Source: an uncultured Nitrospirales bacterium (lineage in GTDB: Bacteria > Nitrospirota > Nitrospiria > Nitrospirales > UBA8639). From it: 64,000 bases of DNA. The position numbers and the translations under genes are program-made. Below are positions 37,892-47,238 of the stretch, piece by piece; position 1 is the first letter of the stretch, and each line of letters opens with the position of its first letter. The notes below the pieces were generated by a model. That model ran no database searches. It had not been told where the DNA came from and saw only the letters and a program-made list of their open reading frames with translations. Location of the stretch: NCBI GenBank assembly GCA_958295805.1, contig OY282373.1, positions 2,327,001 through 2,391,000 of the forward strand, given 5' to 3'.

Positions 37892-38066
37892 CCCGATTCT
37901 TTCCTTTCCCACGCGGGCGACATCCAAAACGTCGTATGCGCTATTGTATCCCAAACCGTCGTGCTGAACCAATTCATCCACGTCCTCTTCAAAACCATCA
38001 TGCCCCACGGAAGATGCACGTGTTCACACTTGGTATTTCACGCACCGTTTGCTAAGAAGACCTTTT

Positions 38067-39169
38067 ATGGGCATTCCGCTGAGATATTCATGTGTCGTCC
38101 CTTGCGTCGTCCTGCTTATGGCGCCCCTTACCTTTGCGTCAGATTCAGGCGAGGAAAAAACTCAAACAACGCTCCACGTCAGTTCCGAAACGGAAGAAGC
38201 ATCCGTGTGGGATTCCCGGGAAGGTTGTCTCCAGGTGGTCGATACGGGTGGACGCATGGCCGTGCCTTCATCAACCACTCTGCGAGTCGGCACGTGGAAC
38301 ATCCGATGGTTTCCCTATGGAGATGCGCCCAATCGCTCAGGACAATCTGATGGGGCAACCGATCTACCTTGGCTCATCTGTACACTTGCATGGCTGAACG
38401 TGGATGTCTTAGCCGTGCAAGAAAATCTGGACACCCCGAAAACAACGTGGCAGACCGTTTTGGAATCACTGGCCGACACGACGGGCGACACTTGGCAATG
38501 GACTCCCCAACCATGTGGAAAATCCGAGAGTCAAAAACTTGGATTCCTATGGAATTCCAACCGGGTGGCCGTTACGCAGGTAAAAAGCCTCTGGCAGTTC
38601 AACGTCAGAGCCCGATCAGACCGAAGCCCGTGTGAAGGCCGATTACGTCCGGGACATTATGGGTACGTGCAATCTCGTCATGAGTCGGGAGCGGATTTTC
38701 ATCTGATTGCCCTGCATTTGAAATCCGGACCGACCGTGTCTGCCGTTGAGGCCCGACAACGAGCCCTTAACCGAATCGATCAAACCGTCAGACAGTTCCT
38801 TGCCACGGACCAGGACGTTGTGATCCTTGGCGATTTCAACACGATGGGGGCAGGAGACAACGCGTCGCGAAGATTTGAGCTATTGAGCTAAAGTACCTGC
38901 GGCGCATGGTCGCCAAAGAGAAGCCCGGCTTTCAAGACCTCCCGCTGAACCCGCCCTGTTCCCACTATTTTCGCGGACGCGGCGGATGGCTCGATCATAT
39001 TATGGTGAATACAGACATGGAAGAGGTTCACACGAGATCGGCCCGCGTCACCGGCTACTGCGTTCAGAACGCGTGCCGCCGCATACAGGGAGACTATCCC
39101 GCGGCCTATCAACAATTATCCGATCACTGCCCCGTGGTCATGACCATCGAAAACCAGGACCGGGATTAA
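38067..39169 (+). pseudogene. endonuclease/exonuclease/phosphatase family protein, broken by an 8-bp duplication
   Basis: Secreted EEP-fold hydrolase (DNase I-like). Signal peptide MGIPLRYSCVVPCVVLLMAP...; then TLRVGTWNIRWFP, LAVQENLD, LHLKSGP and VVILGDFNTMG, which carry Asn, Glu, His and Asp metal-site residues; the C-terminal GWLDHIMVNTD and SDHCPVVMTIE blocks lie in a different frame after an early stop at 38889-38891. Removing one copy of the 8-bp tandem repeat at 38875-38890 joins both parts into one 364-residue frame (RRFELKYLRRMVAKEKPGF). So the gene was intact recently or varies in the population. All catalytic motifs are otherwise present. Confidence 0.85.
38875..38890. repeat. 8-bp tandem duplication TTGAGCTA x2
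   Basis: Two adjacent exact copies of TTGAGCTA within the EEP gene. The extra 8 bp shift the frame by two and bring in a TAA, which is the only lesion seen in the gene. Confidence 0.9.
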
Positions 39170-39334
39170 CGCCACGCATCGAAGATAAGCGTCAACACGA
39201 TGAACCCCTGCCATCCTCTCATCCGTTCCTCCGTAGCGGCGACATCTCATGGCGCCCCATCTTGGGATGCGACGAGCTCTTGCCGCCCCGTCAGCAGACC
39301 AAGCAGGGAGGCGCGATAAGATCGCGCAACGACG

Positions 39335-39466
39335 ATGCCGACCCCATCACCTACCCGATGTTCCTGGGCAACCAACACGCTCCTCATCCGCTACCATGAT
39401 CGAGAATGGGGCATTCCGCTGCATGATGAGAAGAAATTCAGAAATTCATCTAATCTAGATGATTAG
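39335..39466 (+). pseudogene. truncated 5' copy of the tag gene
   Basis: The first 35 codons read as DNA-3-methyladenine glycosylase I (RCSWATNTLLIRYHDREWG, then IPLHDEKKF) and then run into AT-rich foreign DNA and a stop. The nucleotide stretch 39325-39429 is about 95 percent identical to 40576-40680 at the start of the full tag gene (five mismatches in 105). The changes give HDREWGIPLHDE against HDDEWGTPLHDD, both plausible Tag sequences, so the two copies may derive from two different tag alleles. The rest of 39170-39334 holds nothing I recognise. Confidence 0.85.
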
Positions 39467-39532
39467 AATTTGGGGAAAGGATACGCCAACATATTTTCTT
39501 TACCATTAGGCAAAAATGGGAGAATTGTTAAG

Positions 39533-40405
39533 ATGGAAAAGATAGAATCTGACGGAGAAAGACAGATAAGAATAACTCTTGATGAGATGGGAGTTTCTTA
39601 CCAGAAAGAGAAATTATTAGACAATCTCAAAGAAGATTCCAAGGAATTTAGAATAGTTGATTTTTATCTTCCAGAATTTGATGTGTACATAGAATATTTT
39701 GGCGGGTGGGACAAAGCTGACCCTGATAAGAGGCGCAAGGAACGAAAAAGGTATGAGGATAAAATACACGTCTACAAAATTAATAATATCACGTGCATAT
39801 ATATTTATCCTAAACAACTTAAATATCTTCAAAGAGCGATTGAACTTGAGTTGAGCAATTATGGATATTCAAAAAAGAAAAAAGTCCAAATAAGAACAGA
39901 TGTCGAAAAAAAATATTCGATCAAATTTCATCGCTCCATCATTTTCATTATTTCAGGGTTTATGATTTTAGGTCTTATTTATTATGTGGCATTACATTCA
40001 ATGGGTACAAAATTTGAATTGAAGAAAGTTATAGATGGAGACACGATAGAGATACAAAATGATGAAGGAACTATACGATTACAATTGATAGGTATTGATT
40101 CTCCTGAACCAAATGAATGTTTTGGTAAAAAGGCACGTAGGAAAGCAAATGAGGTTTTAACCCAGGCAGGGCAATTTATAGTAGAAGAAGATGACACACA
40201 AGACAAAAAAGATAAATATGAAAGACTCTTAGGGTATATTCATTTACCTGATGGAAGAAACTTTAATGAAATGATGATAAGAGAGGGTTATGCTTCCGAA
40301 TATACCTTTAAGAAACCTTATAAATACGAATCCGATTTTAAGAATGCACAACGATACGCACAACAAAATAATATAGGAATATGGAAAAATTGTAATCAAA
40401 AATAA
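39533..40405 (+). CDS. membrane-anchored double nuclease: PD-(D/E)xK-like domain, TM helix, thermonuclease (SNase) domain
   Basis: 290 residues from MEKIESDGERQ; strongly AT-rich with AT-type codon use, unlike all neighbours. N-terminal part (about 10-105) looks like a restriction-type fold: VDFYLPEFDVYIEYFGGWD followed by RKRYEDKIHVYKINNITCIYIYP, as in Vsr/DUF559-like proteins. One membrane helix (about 122-146, IIFIISGFMILGLIYYVAL). C-terminal SNase domain with ViDGDTIEI, RLQLIGIDSPEP and YERLLGYIHL, which keep the two Arg and the acidic residues of staphylococcal nuclease, ending GIWKNC. The combination is unusual. It sits between two tag 5' ends and was clearly acquired. Confidence 0.8.
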   Translation: MEKIESDGERQIRITLDEMGVSYQKEKLLDNLKEDSKEFRIVDFYLPEFDVYIEYFGGWDKADPDKRRKERKRYEDKIHVYKINNITCIYIYPKQLKYLQRAIELELSNYGYSKKKKVQIRTDVEKKYSIKFHRSIIFIISGFMILGLIYYVALHSMGTKFELKKVIDGDTIEIQNDEGTIRLQLIGIDSPEPNECFGKKARRKANEVLTQAGQFIVEEDDTQDKKDKYERLLGYIHLPDGRNFNEMMIREGYASEYTFKKPYKYESDFKNAQRYAQQNNIGIWKNCNQK

Positions 40406-40575
40406 TCTTTTCTCTTTCCTCATACTAGAATTTTTGAAAAACCGTGTGCTGACGGAACTCAAACGCCGGACGGGACATTCCGGGAAGTGGTCGATAAAAA
40501 AAGCAGAAAACCTAAAAGCCATCACGTCGCCAGACGTGGAACGCCATAGGATGACTCTTTCCGACACTCAGAGAC

Positions 40576-40680
40576 CGCAACGACGATGCCGACCCCATCA
40601 CCTACCCGATGCTCCTGGGCAACCAACACGCTCCTCATCCGCTACCATGATGACGAATGGGGCACTCCGCTGCATGATGA
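40576..40680. repeat. right copy of the 105-bp direct repeat flanking the AT-rich island
   Basis: Partner of 39325-39429; it covers the first 32 codons of tag and 10 bp upstream. Between the copies lie about 1.1 kb of low-GC DNA with the nuclease gene and, at 40430-40575, about 145 bp of normal-GC sequence that I cannot assign. Confidence 0.88.
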
Positions 40681-41158
40681 CGTTCGATTGTTTGAATTCC
40701 TCATTCTTGAAGGCGCTCAAGCCGGATTGAGCTGGGACACGATTCTACGCAAACGTGACGCGTTCCGAGAAGCCTTCGATCATTTCGACGCGGTTGCCGT
40801 CTCCATGTACAACAAGCGAAAAGTGCAGACACTGTTGAACAATCCCGGAATTATTCGGAACAGGCTCAAAATACAGTCGGCCATCCAGAACGCCAACGCG
40901 TTTCTCGCCATTCAACAAGAATTCGGTTCGTTCGATGAGTACATTTGGCGATTCGTTGGAAGGAAACCGATGATGAATCATTGGAAAACACGTGGAGACG
41001 TTCCCTGCCGAACAGCGGAATCTGACGCCATGAGCAAAGACCTCAAGAGACGGGGTTTCTCCTTCGTCGGCACCATCATCTGCTATGCGTTCATGCAAGC
41101 CGTCGGTATGGTCAACGACCATACGATCGATTGCTTCCGCCATCAAGCTCTCCGCTAG
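40586..41158 (+). CDS. tag: DNA-3-methyladenine glycosylase I
   Basis: 190 residues. Removes 3-methyladenine from alkylated DNA. The zinc ligands of Tag are present (Cys9 in RCSW, His21 in YHDDEW, and the His and Cys of NDHTIDC), as is the catalytic region LFEFLILEGAQAGLSW and the RGFSFVGTIICYAFMQA block. Full length against about 187 for E. coli Tag. The start region is duplicated upstream of the AT-rich island, so promoter and first codons may have been exchanged during the insertion. Confidence 0.92.
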   Translation: MPTPSPTRCSWATNTLLIRYHDDEWGTPLHDDVRLFEFLILEGAQAGLSWDTILRKRDAFREAFDHFDAVAVSMYNKRKVQTLLNNPGIIRNRLKIQSAIQNANAFLAIQQEFGSFDEYIWRFVGRKPMMNHWKTRGDVPCRTAESDAMSKDLKRRGFSFVGTIICYAFMQAVGMVNDHTIDCFRHQALR

Positions 41159-41175
41159 CCCCTCTCCCGCCCGGT

Positions 41176-42420
41176 TCACGATTCTGCCCACAACGTACTA
41201 ATCGGCACCGCCCACGTCCCTGACCCGAACGGCAGGATGTCTTCTCCGGCGTATAAGACAATCCCCGTGAACTTTTTCTGTTGAGCCAAGTTTTCCTGAA
41301 ACCATCGCAGATGCTTGAAGTTGTCCCCTTTCACCATGGAACTCGCCTTGACTTCAATTCCGAGCAACGCGCCATCCTCGCGCTCAATCAGAAAATCAAT
41401 CTCTCGCTTCTTTTGGTCCCGATAGTGAAACAGTTGGTACCGTTCGCTTTCTTCGGCGTCCACTTGAGCGGCAAGTTCGTTGAAGACGAAAGTCTCGAAT
41501 ATCTTTCCAACCTGATCGGGATTCAGCCACATGTTATTCATCGGCCATCCCAGAATAGAGGCCATCAACCCGGAATCCGTCAGGAAGAGTTTGCGCTGTC
41601 TTCCGATTTGGGCGTAGTCCGTGTTTGTCCAAGGCGGTACAGGTTCAACCAGATAAAGCAATTTCAGTGCCTCGATGTAACTGTCGAGAGTGGACCGCTG
41701 CATGGACAGACCGGCGCCGATTGCCGAAATATTCATACACTTTCCTGACCACGCGGCCAGTACGGCAACAAGGTCCCGCAACGCGCCATGGCGCCTGATG
41801 CGGGATATATCTTTCAAATCCCGTTGCAACAATGATTCAATGTAATTGTCATACCACTGCCGGCGCCGAAGATAACTCAACTTTGCAGGTTCTGGAAAAC
41901 CGCCCCGGAGTGCCAGTTCAAGCAATTCTCTGCGATTCTCGGCGGCAGGTCGTTTTTTCCTCACGAAAGTCCGGTCGAATGCGGCCGGTAAAAATCCCGG
42001 ACTCACTCTCCTCATCTCGCCCTGAGTCAACGGGCGCAACCGGATTCTGTGCGTTCGTCCGGCCAGGGATTCAATGGCAACTGGTGAGGTCAAGACATCC
42101 GATGAGCCGGTCAGCAGGAACTGCCCAGGCCGATTGTCTTCATCCACCGCTTGCTTGATGGCCAGAAGCAAATCCGGCGCACGCTGAAATTCATCAATAA
42201 TCAGCGTGGATTTTTCGTGTCGGATAAACTCCCGTGGATCATGACGCACGGCCTCCAGGGTTCTGCCGTCGTCCAGCGTGAGGTACTCTATTTCCCCGGA
42301 AGCGAGCATCCGCGCCAAAGTGGTTTTTCCGCATTGCCTGGCTCCCGACAAGACGACGATTCGTGCATATTGTAGGGCCTGCTTGACAAGGGGCAACTGC
42401 CAGCGTGGATACGTGTTCAT
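41176..42420 (-). CDS. AAA_14/DUF4143 family ATPase
   Basis: 414 residues from MNTYPRWQ. Walker A LSGARQCGKTTLARM, Walker B TLIIDEFQRAPDLL, arginine/sensor segment GQFLLTGSSDVL, then the DUF4143 winged-helix part and a C-terminal PD-(D/E)xK-like element EIDFLIEREDGALLGIEVKAS. These proteins are widespread in accessory regions and of unknown function. Placed between tag and an AT-rich gene-free stretch, which marks it as part of the variable region. Confidence 0.88.
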   Translation of the reverse strand: MNTYPRWQLPLVKQALQYARIVVLSGARQCGKTTLARMLASGEIEYLTLDDGRTLEAVRHDPREFIRHEKSTLIIDEFQRAPDLLLAIKQAVDEDNRPGQFLLTGSSDVLTSPVAIESLAGRTHRIRLRPLTQGEMRRVSPGFLPAAFDRTFVRKKRPAAENRRELLELALRGGFPEPAKLSYLRRRQWYDNYIESLLQRDLKDISRIRRHGALRDLVAVLAAWSGKCMNISAIGAGLSMQRSTLDSYIEALKLLYLVEPVPPWTNTDYAQIGRQRKLFLTDSGLMASILGWPMNNMWLNPDQVGKIFETFVFNELAAQVDAEESERYQLFHYRDQKKREIDFLIEREDGALLGIEVKASSMVKGDNFKHLRWFQENLAQQKKFTGIVLYAGEDILPFGSGTWAVPISTLWAES

Positions 42421-43000
42421 GGCAACGGCAGTATCAAGAAATAGTAAGATTTGCGCATTATTCAATGTTATATTTGATGATAATACATAGTTATTTTTGA
42501 GTATTTAAGTAAGTAATATTTGTATATTATAAATATTTTTTTTGACTTAAATCAATAGAATACACTCTAAAAAATTATTGTTGAATTATCGAGACCAATT
42601 CTAAACTAAAGGGCTTTTCAACAATCTGAAATTCAGAACGGACGTCATGTTTATTTCCAAGTCGGCTGGATTACGGCTTCCACCTGAATGACGGAGTGTA
42701 GCGGGGTAACGAATGAAATTCACTACGATCCGCAATCTGAACGCGTCTAAATCTACATCGAGATTCCCATACATAAAAGTACTTGACAAAAAATAGAATA
42801 ACGCAATATATTGTGGTATCACTATAAAGCAAGCACATGATATGTAAATCATAGCTTGCTCATGAGTCGCCCCTTTCTGAGAAGACAGAAACTTGTCACA
42901 AAGAATTTCCGTATAAGTAACGCGAAACTTCCGCGGGTTGTGTTTGATCCAATCGTGATACAGGAGAGCGTCGCTCTATCCACGCGAAAGGAGACGTGTT
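42421..43000. other. gene-free AT-rich stretch with a candidate promoter
   Basis: Low-GC DNA at 42470-42600 and 42780-42860. A sigma-70-like pair TTGACA (42783-42788), 18-bp spacer, TATATT (42807-42812) points right. An imperfect hairpin CAAGC...GCTTG with inner ATGAT/ATCAT follows at 42829-42857. A degraded palindrome copy may lie near 42665-42705. No coding frame supported. Confidence 0.45.
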
Positions 43001-43252
43001 ATGGCTAGTCAGGTCACCATTGAACACAAGCACGCCATCTTCAAGAAACGTCGGCTCAAAGGACAAGGCCAATGGTTTGTCCGGGTTTCGTGTAATTTTC
43101 TCGAACCTCGAGTCTATGGCCCATTTCTTGATGAGCAACAGGCCGAACGTTTTCGAGAGGGTGCCGAATTTGAACTCCGAAAACTGCTGGATTGCCAACT
43201 CCCCACCATCTCCGGGGACTTTCATCTTTCCTTCCCTCGGCGCGAAATGTAG
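43001..43252 (+). CDS. small hypothetical protein
   Basis: 83 residues behind a good ribosome site (GAAAGGAGACGTGTT). Basic N-terminal half (HKHAIFKKRRLKGQGQWFVR) and a Glu/Arg-rich helix (EQQAERFREGAEFELRKLLD). No family recognised, no signal peptide. The promoter-like pair about 190 bp upstream could serve it. Confidence 0.55.
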   Translation: MASQVTIEHKHAIFKKRRLKGQGQWFVRVSCNFLEPRVYGPFLDEQQAERFREGAEFELRKLLDCQLPTISGDFHLSFPRREM

Positions 43253-43844
43253 CCTGTCCCTCTGCACTGTTTGAATTGACGTGACGTATCGGAGGAAAAA
43301 GGTAACCGGATTCGGTTAGCCTTGGCCGGAGCAGCAGCAGACCATTTTCCGGGGTGACCGACCGTGCCTCGGCCTGCATAAGTGTCTATCATTATCAGAA
43401 ATATCCTTCATAATCTCCGCTTCCGCCTGTTCCCAAATCTGGACCGTAATCCACCAGCTATGCACAGGCACTTATTGTGAAATACGTAAAAGGTACGTAA
43501 ATAAATATTCATAACACTTTGATTATATTGATTTCTTAGAAATTCAAGAAGGTCATCCCCTAAATATGGGGATAAGGTTGTGGATTAGTGTTGTACAAAG
43601 AAATAGAACAAAGTGGTGAAAGGATTTTTTACCAATATGCCTCTTTTTTGGGCATTGTGGCCAGAACATGCAGACCACAAAATCTATGGTGAGGAAGTCC
43701 CTTGCGGAAGGGTACGTAGAGAACGTTTTTTGGGGTTCATCCCTGGCTTGGCGAGGATTCAGATTTCATTGCATTCAGACTTCGCTCTTTGTACATTGCC
43801 CTTCGCAACGTCTCCCATTTTTTTGATAGAGAGAACAAGCCCGT
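43253..43844. other. intergenic stretch without supported gene
   Basis: AT-rich in the middle (43470-43620). Contains a perfect inverted repeat ATCCCC-TAAATAT-GGGGAT near 43553-43571 and two TACGTAAA direct repeats near 43486-43500. An open frame at 43613-44086 overlaps the peptidase gene in another frame and has no family features. Confidence 0.5.
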
Positions 43845-45383
43845 ATGCCGAACCCAACACAAGCCCTGGCTCCCTTAAAGGCCAAACTCCTGGAAATTCA
43901 ACACCTGAAGGATGCAGCGGCTCTGCTGTCGTGGGATCAAGAAACGTATATGCCGGCCGGCGGAGGACAAGCCCGTGCCGAACAACTCGCTACGCTGCAA
44001 ACCCTGGCTCATACAAAACTTGTGTCTCCGGACATCGAAAACCTGCTCCTGACGACCATCGATCCTTCGACGGGCGTGGTGCATGATCCCGACCATAGCC
44101 TGGATTCAGCCGACCACGCGTTGTTTCGTGAAACGTGGCGCGACTTCAGTAAGGCCCAAAAACTCCCCTCCGATTTTGTGAATCGCCTGGAACGGGAACG
44201 TGCTCTGGCCCAGCAAGTGTGGACGCAGGCTCGAGCCCGCAACGACTTCGCGCAATTTCTCCCCAACCTTCGAACCGTTCTGGACTTAAAACGTGAAGAA
44301 ATTAACTATCGAGGCTATACGGATTCTCCCTACAACGCGCTCTTGGACACCTACGAGCCCGGGGCCACCGTGGCGCACCTTCAGCCGTTATTTGCGAGGC
44401 TTCGCGATGGGTTGGCGGAACTGTTGAAACACGTCCAAGCCTCCTCCTCACGTCCCGATAATCGCTTTCTGTTTCACTCCTACGATTGTGACCGGCAATT
44501 GGCATTCGGCAAACTCATGCTCGACAAAGTGGGATACGATTTTCATCACGGCCGGCTGGATCTCTCGGAGCACCCTTTTACCATGGCCTTTCATCCCACG
44601 GACGTCCGCATGACGACCCGCGTGTTCGAGAAAGACCTTCCCTCCTGTATCTTCAGTTGTCTCCATGAAGGAGGGCACGGTCTCTACGATCAAGGTCTGC
44701 CTCAACGCCATTACGGCACGCCCTTAGGGGAGGCGCTGTCGCTCGGTCTCCATGAAAGCCAATCCCGCTTGTGGGAAAACAACGTCGGCCGGTCACAAGC
44801 CTTTTGGACGTATTTTTTCCCGTTGCTTCAACAACAGTTTCCCTCACAACTCGGCTCGATGTCCGTAGACGCCTTTTATGCCGCGTTGAATACCGTCAAC
44901 CCCTCGTTGATCCGGGTGGAGGCGGACGAGGTCACGTACAACCTCCACATTATGGTGCGGTTTGAAATTGAACTCGCCTTGTTTGACCAACGGATTCACG
45001 TCGAAGACCTGCCCGCGACGTGGCGAGAGAAAATGCAGGAACATCTTGGAATTGTTCCCGAACGAGACGCGGATGGCGTCCTGCAAGACGTCCATTGGTC
45101 GCTTGGGGCCTTCGGCTACTTTCCCACCTATACCCTGGGCAACCTGTACGCCGCGATGTTTTTCCAGCAGGCCTGCCAGGACGTCCCTACGCTGGAATCC
45201 GAAATCAAGCAAGGGAGCCTGCTTGCACTCAAAAACTGGCTGACCCGACGGATCCATCAGCACGGCCGTCGCTACTCGGCCACCGAACTCCTCCACCGCG
45301 TCACCGGACAACCGCTGAGCCCCGAACCCTTTTTATCCTACCTCCAGACCAAAATCGGAAAGATTTACGGCTTCAGCATTTAA
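43845..45383 (+). CDS. carboxypeptidase M32 (thermostable carboxypeptidase 1 family)
   Basis: 512-residue cytoplasmic metallo-carboxypeptidase. The zinc site is HEGGH in CIFSCLHEGGHGLYDQGLPQ with the third ligand Glu in GLHESQSRLWENNVGRS. Start and end segments (LKDAAALLSWDQETYMPAGG and GYFPTYTLGNLYAAMFF) are typical of the family and the length is normal. A decayed copy of its zinc-site region lies 1.2 kb downstream, beyond the DUF3800 cassette. Confidence 0.93.
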   Translation: MPNPTQALAPLKAKLLEIQHLKDAAALLSWDQETYMPAGGGQARAEQLATLQTLAHTKLVSPDIENLLLTTIDPSTGVVHDPDHSLDSADHALFRETWRDFSKAQKLPSDFVNRLERERALAQQVWTQARARNDFAQFLPNLRTVLDLKREEINYRGYTDSPYNALLDTYEPGATVAHLQPLFARLRDGLAELLKHVQASSSRPDNRFLFHSYDCDRQLAFGKLMLDKVGYDFHHGRLDLSEHPFTMAFHPTDVRMTTRVFEKDLPSCIFSCLHEGGHGLYDQGLPQRHYGTPLGEALSLGLHESQSRLWENNVGRSQAFWTYFFPLLQQQFPSQLGSMSVDAFYAALNTVNPSLIRVEADEVTYNLHIMVRFEIELALFDQRIHVEDLPATWREKMQEHLGIVPERDADGVLQDVHWSLGAFGYFPTYTLGNLYAAMFFQQACQDVPTLESEIKQGSLLALKNWLTRRIHQHGRRYSATELLHRVTGQPLSPEPFLSYLQTKIGKIYGFSI

Positions 45384-45718: not shown

Positions 45719-46501
45719 ATGTACATTCTGTATCTTGACGAGTCCGGTACCCATTCAGAGGCCAGCTACTTTGTGTTAGCTGGCCTCGCTGTTTTTGAGC
45801 GCGAAATCCACTGGTTTTCTCAAGATCTTGATGCACTGCAGAGGGAATATTTTCCCGCTGAAAACGAACCGGTTTTTTTCCACGCCCGGACACTTCGAGT
45901 ACCCGATACCACCGGATTGCCGGCGCCTCTGAATCAACTCAACAGGGAACGGTTGAGGGAGATAAAGGACAAAATCTACGACATTCTCCGCAAACGCGGG
46001 GCAGTATTATTTGGATGTGCCGTAGAGAAGAACTATGCCGAAGTGCGCCGTGAAGACCCATATGAATGGGCATTTGAAGACTTGATCAGCCGCTTCGATC
46101 TGTTTCTCAGGCGAATTAACCGATTAGCGGTAGAGGAAAGCAGAGAAGAACAAAGAGGTCTCGTGGTGCTCGCCGAATCAAACTACAAAAAAACAATTTC
46201 CTTGTTAGCGCAAAGATTAAAGCAATCAGGTACCCGGTGGCGGTCAATCCGTAACGTCACTGACATTCCGCTGTTTGCGCCTGCTCGTGATTCGAGAATG
46301 CTTCAATACGCAGATTTTTGTGCCAACGCAATCTATGGACGATATCATGGAGGATTGACTGGCGATTTCGACAAAATCGCGCCCAAATTCGATAGAGAAG
46401 GCGGGGCCGTCCATGGGCTGTCGCACCTATCCAACGACTCAAGCTGCGTTTGCCTAGCATGCCTTGGTCGCCAGGGACGCCAACAGGGCTTATCGATTTA
46501 G
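45719..46501 (+). CDS. DUF3800 domain protein
   Basis: 260 residues. Family marks: MYILYLDESG at the very start (the conserved Asp-Glu-Ser) and RMLQYADFCANAIYGRY near the end; a middle segment GLVVLAESNYKKT carries another acidic residue. The fold is thought to be RNase H-like, so nuclease activity on RNA is a reasonable guess, not shown. The last 35 residues look non-family and could be read-through into flanking DNA. No plain ribosome site precedes the ATG; the folded RNA just upstream may control or be the partner of the protein. Confidence 0.85.
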   Translation: MYILYLDESGTHSEASYFVLAGLAVFEREIHWFSQDLDALQREYFPAENEPVFFHARTLRVPDTTGLPAPLNQLNRERLREIKDKIYDILRKRGAVLFGCAVEKNYAEVRREDPYEWAFEDLISRFDLFLRRINRLAVEESREEQRGLVVLAESNYKKTISLLAQRLKQSGTRWRSIRNVTDIPLFAPARDSRMLQYADFCANAIYGRYHGGLTGDFDKIAPKFDREGGAVHGLSHLSNDSSCVCLACLGRQGRQQGLSI

Positions 46502-46875: not shown

Positions 46876-47238
46876 ATGCAACGCTTTTCGCAACTCAGTC
46901 GGTCGTACGTCACGCTCAGTCTGCTGACGGTCATGCTCGTCGTCGGTTTTTCAGGGATGGTCTTGGCTGATGAAAAACAGAGTGAGACCGGCGCGATGGC
47001 CGAACCGATGGCCGAACAAAAGATTGACGTGAATACGGCGACGGCCGAAGAACTTCAGCAATTAAAGGGAATCGGCGAAAAAAAGGCTGAGGAAATCGTT
47101 AAACACCGAACCGCCAACGGGCCATTCAAGAGCGTGGACGACTTGGCAAACGTCAAAGGCATTGGCGAAGCGACTGTCGCGAAGCTCAAGGACCAAGTCA
47201 CGGTTGGGATGCCCCCCAAAGCAAAAGCATCAGAGTAG
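46876..47238 (+). CDS. secreted helix-hairpin-helix protein (ComEA-like)
   Basis: 120 residues with an AAAGGAGGAATCTT ribosome site. Signal peptide ending near MVLADE, then one HhH module pair: KIDVNTATAEELQQLKGIGE and the repeat FKSVDDLANVKGIGEATVAKL. This is the ComEA DNA-binding domain of periplasmic DNA-uptake receptors, here without the long linker. No other competence genes lie nearby. Confidence 0.85.
   Translation: MQRFSQLSRSYVTLSLLTVMLVVGFSGMVLADEKQSETGAMAEPMAEQKIDVNTATAEELQQLKGIGEKKAEEIVKHRTANGPFKSVDDLANVKGIGEATVAKLKDQVTVGMPPKAKASE

What the first reader, a model, noticed from the sequence alone, without database searches (positions are those of the whole stretch)
39533..40405. Unusual fusion: restriction-like domain, membrane helix and thermonuclease domain in one protein
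Two putative nuclease domains are separated by one membrane helix, so one would face the cytoplasm and the other the periplasm or cell surface. I do not know of a described family with this order. The low GC and island position suggest a defence or DNA-processing role against incoming DNA.
Basis: inference. Interest (0 to 1): 0.6.

Follow-up and report, generated by a model that had tools for sequence, protein, structure and literature searches.

The report
Membrane protein carrying two nuclease folds
A single foreign-looking gene encodes a protein with one DNA-cutting-enzyme fold predicted inside the cell and another outside, joined by one membrane helix; the combination was not seen elsewhere in the genomes searched, and it may guard the point where foreign DNA enters, although this is untested.

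Summary
Window 39533-40405 (+) is an intact 290-residue ORF with three parts. Residues ~1-112 are a Vsr/EDxHD-like PD-(D/E)xK nuclease fold: PADLOC PDC-S69 E=3e-9; modelled fold matches I-Bth0305I at Z 11.6. Residues ~134-156 are one membrane helix. Residues ~158-290 are a staphylococcal-nuclease (SNase) domain: Pfam 1.3e-20, Z 21.4.

Two corrections. The SNase domain has Gln184 at the position of catalytic Arg35; R stood there in 96 of 96 motif matches from 103 loci scanned. So its cutting activity is doubtful, while the cytoplasmic domain keeps E9, D43, E54 and K77. Also, the 'island' is one AT-rich kilobase (GC 0.32) between flanks of GC 0.51-0.61, inserted between two genes that abut in 13 of 13 congeners examined, with the first 105 bp of tag present twice.

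No same-architecture relative was found, but the main genome-wide test was a narrow motif pattern. Best explanation (0.4): a membrane-tethered nuclease acting on DNA crossing the membrane, SNIPE-like in logic but built from other domains. No functional evidence exists. New variant of a known kind; single instance.

The parts
39533..40405 (+). ORF of 290 aa: PD-(D/E)xK-like domain, membrane helix, SNase domain
39548..39868 (+). residues 6-112: Vsr/EDxHD-like PD-(D/E)xK nuclease domain; E9, D43, E54, K77 conserved
   Evidence: PDC-S69 3.3e-9; 3r3p 4.9e-5 by profile; model pLDDT 79-96, Z 11.6; invariant residues in 30 of 30 rows of A4
39932..40000 (+). residues 134-156: single predicted membrane helix, preceded by a K/R-rich stretch
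40004..40402 (+). residues 158-290: SNase domain with Gln184 (codon 40082-40084) at the Arg35 position; E192 and R231 kept
39433..40435 (+). AT-rich insert (GC about 0.32 against 0.54 for the window) that carries only this gene
39325..39429 (+). partial copy (95% over 105 bp) of the start of tag, left of the insert
40576..40680 (+). second copy of the same 105 bp: start of the intact tag gene (40586-41158)
39220..39335 (+). copy of a dispersed palindromic intergenic repeat on the left flank

Best explanation
It is a horizontally acquired, inner-membrane-anchored nuclease that acts on DNA while it crosses the membrane (phage injection, conjugation or transformation). Inferred steps: the protein sits N-in/C-out like a type II signal-anchor SNase; the periplasmic SNase fold grips or weakly nicks DNA in the periplasm; the cytoplasmic Vsr-like PD-(D/E)xK domain, whose E9/D43/E54/K77 set is intact, cuts the DNA as it emerges. 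Anchoring would keep it away from the host nucleoid, the logic shown for SNIPE. Shown here: the three parts, their folds (by sequence and model), the residue patterns, the foreign composition and the empty site in congeners. Not shown: topology, catalysis, DNA binding, any defence phenotype.
For: Domain evidence. N-domain catalytic residues invariant with 29 viral relatives, and K77 with Y81 also matched in cellular and viral proteins nearer in subtype (L183, L185, L206). Best whole-domain match is to a PADLOC candidate defence family. Single-gene AT-rich insertion absent from 13 of 13 congener sites examined and not found by protein search in 20 of 20 relatives beyond its SNase half. Precedents read: SNIPE, a membrane-bound nuclease cleaving phage DNA at injection (PMC13190303: abstract and passages); Nuc2, a type II membrane SNase facing outward (PMC3994088: abstract and passages).
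Against: No functional data. Gln184 replaces the catalytic Arg of the SNase site. The N-domain lacks the His and last Asp of the EDxHD motif, so activity there is also unproven. No surrounding defence genes among those scanned. Known in a single genome, so no sign of selection can be measured. PADLOC matches cover only the last third of the PDC-S69 profile.
Confidence: 0.4

Rival explanations
1. It is an outward-facing DNA-processing SNase (environmental DNA degradation or nutrient scavenging), and the N-terminal nuclease fold is a regulatory or chance addition.
For: TM/signal plus SNase proteins without the N-domain are common: at least 5000 plasmid records match the SNase part, and 67 of 398 genomes of one other phylum at E<=1e-8. 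Nuc2 is a known membrane SNase with outward orientation.
Against: Gln184 at the Arg35 position suggests poor outward catalysis, while the N-domain keeps its putative catalytic residues, the reverse of what this predicts.
Confidence: 0.2
2. It is a mobile, homing-endonuclease-like gene: the Vsr/EDxHD-type domain once drove its insertion next to tag, and the duplicated tag start is the scar.
For: The N-domain's phage relatives sit next to terminase or in RNA polymerase genes. The insert is one gene wide and is flanked by 105 bp of duplicated tag sequence.
Against: No intron or ribozyme in 38000-44000 at gathering score; EDxHD His and last Asp not kept; no zinc-ribbon-like recognition region as in several of the phage proteins; a membrane helix and SNase are not expected in a homing enzyme; no second copy in the genome.
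Confidence: 0.1
3. It is a gene carried in with a plasmid or conjugative element, acting in the donor's own DNA transfer, now stranded.
For: Membrane or secreted SNases are frequent on conjugative plasmids (3632 of the 5000 best records were typed conjugative). The insert is compositionally foreign.
Against: No plasmid or transfer gene beside it; no record with 80% query coverage on plasmids or phages.
Confidence: 0.15
4. It is a decaying acquired gene without function; Gln184 and the altered EDxHD motif are signs of degeneration.
For: Gln184; His and last Asp missing in the N-domain; single genome.
Against: Open frame of 290 codons with a plausible ribosome-binding site and three coherent domains; the four other N-domain residues kept; positions G1>G2 in codons as in coding AT-rich DNA.
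Confidence: 0.15

Closest known systems
I-Bth0305I / Vsr / DUF559-like branch of the PD-(D/E)xK superfamily, with PADLOC candidate PDC-S69
   Same: Fold of residues 6-112 (Z 11.6, 10.6 and 9.6 to 3r3p, 1cw0, 3hrl); E9, D43, E54 and K77 kept; best profile PDC-S69.
   Different: His and last Asp of EDxHD absent; no sequence-recognition domain; only profile positions 191-286 of 289 of PDC-S69 are matched.
Nuc2-type membrane SNase (Staphylococcus aureus; PMC3994088)
   Same: One N-terminal-side membrane helix followed by an SNase domain, predicted outward.
   Different: A 110-residue nuclease fold precedes the helix; Arg35 position is Gln.
SNIPE (PMC13190303)
   Same: Membrane-anchored nuclease, one membrane helix; the proposed logic of cutting DNA at entry.
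   Different: SNIPE has DUF4041 and GIY-YIG domains, both cytoplasmic; none of these is present here, and here a second nuclease fold is predicted on the outer side.

Membership tests
SNase family (PF00565) | profile match above the curated cut-off | tested here: met
   74.3 bits against a cut-off of 21
SNase family (PF00565) | SNase fold | tested here: met
   Z 21.4, rmsd 1.4 over 128 residues, on a model made with 14 SNase rows
SNase family (PF00565) | catalytic Arg35, Glu43, Arg87 (staphylococcal numbering, recalled) | tested here: not met
   Glu43 and Arg87 kept as E192 and R231, Arg35 is Gln184. Active SNase, therefore, not established
PD-(D/E)xK superfamily, Vsr/EDxHD branch | common core fold | tested here: met
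   the model used 29 relatives of that branch, so it is not independent of the sequence match
EDxHD homing endonucleases | E, D, H, D motif (motif recalled; family named in PMC6083498, search listing) | tested here: not met
   E9 and D43 kept; QH column reads W59-D60 or a gap and the last D column reads Y74 or D76 by alignment
EDxHD homing endonucleases | residence in or beside an intron, intein or split gene | tested here: not met
   no Rfam match in 38000-44000; tag itself is intact
PADLOC PDC-S69 | match over the profile | tested here: not met
   positions 191-286 of 289 only
SNIPE | DUF4041 plus GIY-YIG nuclease | tested here: not met
   Pfam scan at E<=10 lists SNase only
Nuc2-type type II membrane SNase | single helix N-terminal to SNase, C-terminus outside | tested here: inconclusive
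   helix and SNase present; orientation inferred from K/R before the helix and from the large N-terminal domain
Anti-phage defence system | protection against phage or plasmid | not testable with these tools
   none

The most novel reading that the evidence does not exclude
A two-sided DNA-entry trap: a periplasmic SNase fold that has lost its catalytic Arg serves as a DNA gripper or sensor, and through one membrane helix positions a cytoplasmic Vsr-like nuclease that cuts the DNA as it emerges. Self and non-self would be told apart by location alone, in a protein unrelated to SNIPE.
Probability: 0.2. Interest if true: 0.75.

Novelty: new variant of a known kind. Interest (0 to 1): 0.42.

Why it matters
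If it works as proposed, location-based immunity at the inner membrane, shown so far for SNIPE among single-protein nucleases in the papers read, would have been reached again from different domains, with a nuclease fold on each side of the membrane. It would also give a use for an SNase domain without its catalytic Arg. If it does not, it is a rare fusion of two common modules.

Tried and rejected
Same-architecture searches. (1) search for related loci with the whole protein: genome contigs 60 candidate stretches, 0 confirmed; viral contigs 5 candidates, 0 confirmed; these patterns find close relatives only. (2) A DNA pattern for DF(Y/F)xP-x5-xE followed 301-361 nt later by DGDT: 7 matches in genome contigs, all 7 rejected by translation (frame, stop or unrelated protein); a slightly stricter form gave 0 in viral contigs and the same form gave 1 of 395 phylum genomes, the window's own. 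Its sensitivity is limited: it requires codon GAT, and by eye 6 of the 9 N-domain relatives fit the peptide motif, so absence is weak evidence. (3) N-domain alone in 395 phylum genomes: own genome and one DUF559 protein. (4) PDC-S69 in 295 phylum genomes: 6 with a match including own; in the 5 others the ORFs translated (a 257-aa protein, a RecD-like helicase, a 406-aa protein, two DUF559-like) showed no helix-plus-SNase. (5) Whole protein in 398 genomes of another phylum: 67 with SNase matches, none starting before query residue 109; 15 of these ORFs plus one other were scanned with an N-domain profile, best E 0.46. (6) N-domain subtype pattern: 2 viral matches, both without an SNase; stricter form 0; 0 of 398 genomes.

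A mixed alignment of N-domain and SNase fragments misaligned and was dropped. In one search one row (L187) was taken in a wrong frame and is ignored. A4 used 29 of the 42 viral loci; A7 used 14 of the 80.

Arg35 check: the 96 of 96 count is of motif matches in 103 loci; loci without the motif are not counted. It is not universal in more divergent SNases: in alignment A2 three of the seven relatives have N at that position.

Papers: searches for the architecture or the candidate family gave 0 papers, or papers in which SNase does not occur (4 listed; titles and abstract starts only). A search for insertion at tag gave 0. Searches are listings apart from the papers named as read.

Promoter and terminator scans of the insert were at chance level. 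Rfam at E<=1 gave three eukaryotic-family matches below gathering score, taken as chance.

Full report
What is there. The ORF at 39533-40405 (+) is as described: ATG to stop, 290 residues, no internal stop, with GGGAG about 10 nt upstream of the ATG. Pfam sees only SNase, residues 182-286, E=1.3e-20. The best helix window is residues 136-154, mean hydropathy 2.51. It is preceded by a K/R-rich stretch (KKKK...RTDVEKKYSIKFHR), which together with the 130-residue domain before it favours N-in/C-out; this is inference.

The N-terminal domain. Pfam has nothing, but PADLOC's PDC-S69 matches residues 6-112 at 3.3e-9 and HEAT_CxxC_PDDEXK residues 4-65 at 2.2e-7. tblastn against phages gives 34 records at E<=0.1, best 5e-5, nearly all over residues 5-57. 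Eight phage or plasmid regions were opened; those with annotated context include proteins lying between terminase pieces or inside an RNA polymerase gene, as homing endonucleases do. A profile of the domain and nine relatives (A1) finds the catalytic domain of I-Bth0305I (3r3p, 4.9e-5), 3hrl (1.7e-4) and AbaSI (0.0015) among solved structures; the single sequence finds none. An AF2 model with 29 viral relatives shows H-E-E-E-H-E-H at pLDDT 79-96 over residues 1-110; VIA-align gives Z 11.6 (3r3p, rmsd 2.6 over 94), 10.6 (Vsr 1cw0, rmsd 2.9 over 103) and 9.6 (3hrl, rmsd 2.3 over 87). The control model, with no relatives of this part in its alignment, did not resolve it, so the fold call depends on the homology. 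E9, D43, E54 and K77 are invariant in 30 of 30 rows. The EDxHD His and last Asp are not kept. Proteins nearer in subtype (IE-aromatic-aromatic-G, then K-x3-Y) were found in the phylum (L183 and L185) and in one viral contig (L206); K77 and Y81 fit that subtype. This subtype reading is by eye.

The C-terminal domain. With SNase relatives in the alignment, block means of pLDDT are 86-98 over residues 161-290, and the fold matches staphylococcal nuclease at Z 21.4, rmsd 1.4 over 128 residues. In the ungapped alignment, D170, D189, E192 and R231 fall on D21, D40, E43 and R87 (numbering recalled), but Arg35 falls on Gln184. R stands there in 96 of 96 motif matches from 103 loci; three of seven divergent relatives in A2 have N. 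Loss of Arg35 is expected to cripple catalysis (recalled from enzymology; not read here). R182, two residues before it, cannot be excluded as a substitute.

How it got there. The AT-rich stretch is 39433-40435, about 1.0 kb, GC about 0.32; its flanks have GC 0.57-0.61 on the left and 0.51-0.53 on the right. Left of it lies a 105-bp copy, 95% identical, of the start of tag; the intact tag (methyladenine glycosylase, PF03352 4.3e-81) lies right of it. In 13 of 13 congener loci examined the upstream exo/endonuclease-phosphatase gene abuts tag within a few bases; a fourteenth tag match (L026, a second copy in one congener) was not examined. So about 1.4 kb was inserted in this lineage. No second copy of the insert exists in the genome. 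A palindromic repeat on the left flank has 70 matches at E<=1 in the genome, the query itself included. Downstream, an AAA_14/DUF4143 ATPase gene at 41176-42465 lies in a second stretch without counterpart in congeners.

Distribution. No protein with the same architecture was found: details and limits are under Tried and rejected. The strongest single test is the genome contigs pattern, 7 matches of which none survived translation, and its sensitivity is modest. The fusion is therefore rare or rapidly changing, not proven unique.

Mechanism. Two facts pull in one direction: the inside domain keeps a plausible active site, the outside domain has lost part of its own. The most economical working idea is that the outside domain binds DNA and the inside domain cuts it, with the membrane setting where this can happen. 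SNIPE shows that a membrane-bound nuclease can cut phage DNA during injection and that anchoring prevents self-damage (PMC13190303, abstract and passages; review PMC12904381, passages). Nuc2 shows that a helix-plus-SNase protein faces outward (PMC3994088, abstract and passages). Neither shows this for the present protein. The rivals (outward DNase, homing relic, plasmid transfer gene, decaying gene) stay open, and I give the main reading 0.4.

Verdict. New variant of a known kind; interest 0.42 because it is a single instance without function.

Noticed in passing
window 39220-39335; G000 C1 2624500-2625600 (L207), C1 40900-42900 (L208): A dispersed palindromic intergenic repeat (core close to GGCGCCATGAGATGGCGCC) occurs many times in this genome, in places as arrays with about 90-bp or 310-345-bp spacing; one copy borders the insert and ends just before the partial tag copy.
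   Followed up: partly
window 41176-42465 (-): AAA_14/DUF4143 ATPase gene in a stretch between tag and the next conserved gene that congeners lack: a second accessory insertion beside the first.
   Followed up: partly
window 46876-47238 (+): Small protein with a signal-like start and a helix-hairpin-helix-like repeat, resembling ComEA by eye (recalled, no profile run); a periplasmic DNA-binding protein a few kb from a DNA-entry candidate.
   Followed up: no
window 45719-46501 (+): DUF3800 protein (PF12686, 2.6e-17), a family of unknown function.
   Followed up: no
G277 C99:4061-4321 (L185): RecD-like helicase with a C-terminal domain of the same nuclease subtype as the N-terminal domain studied here.
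   Followed up: no
L026 (G285:C58): A second, truncated-looking tag copy in one congener (match to residues 26-189).
   Followed up: no
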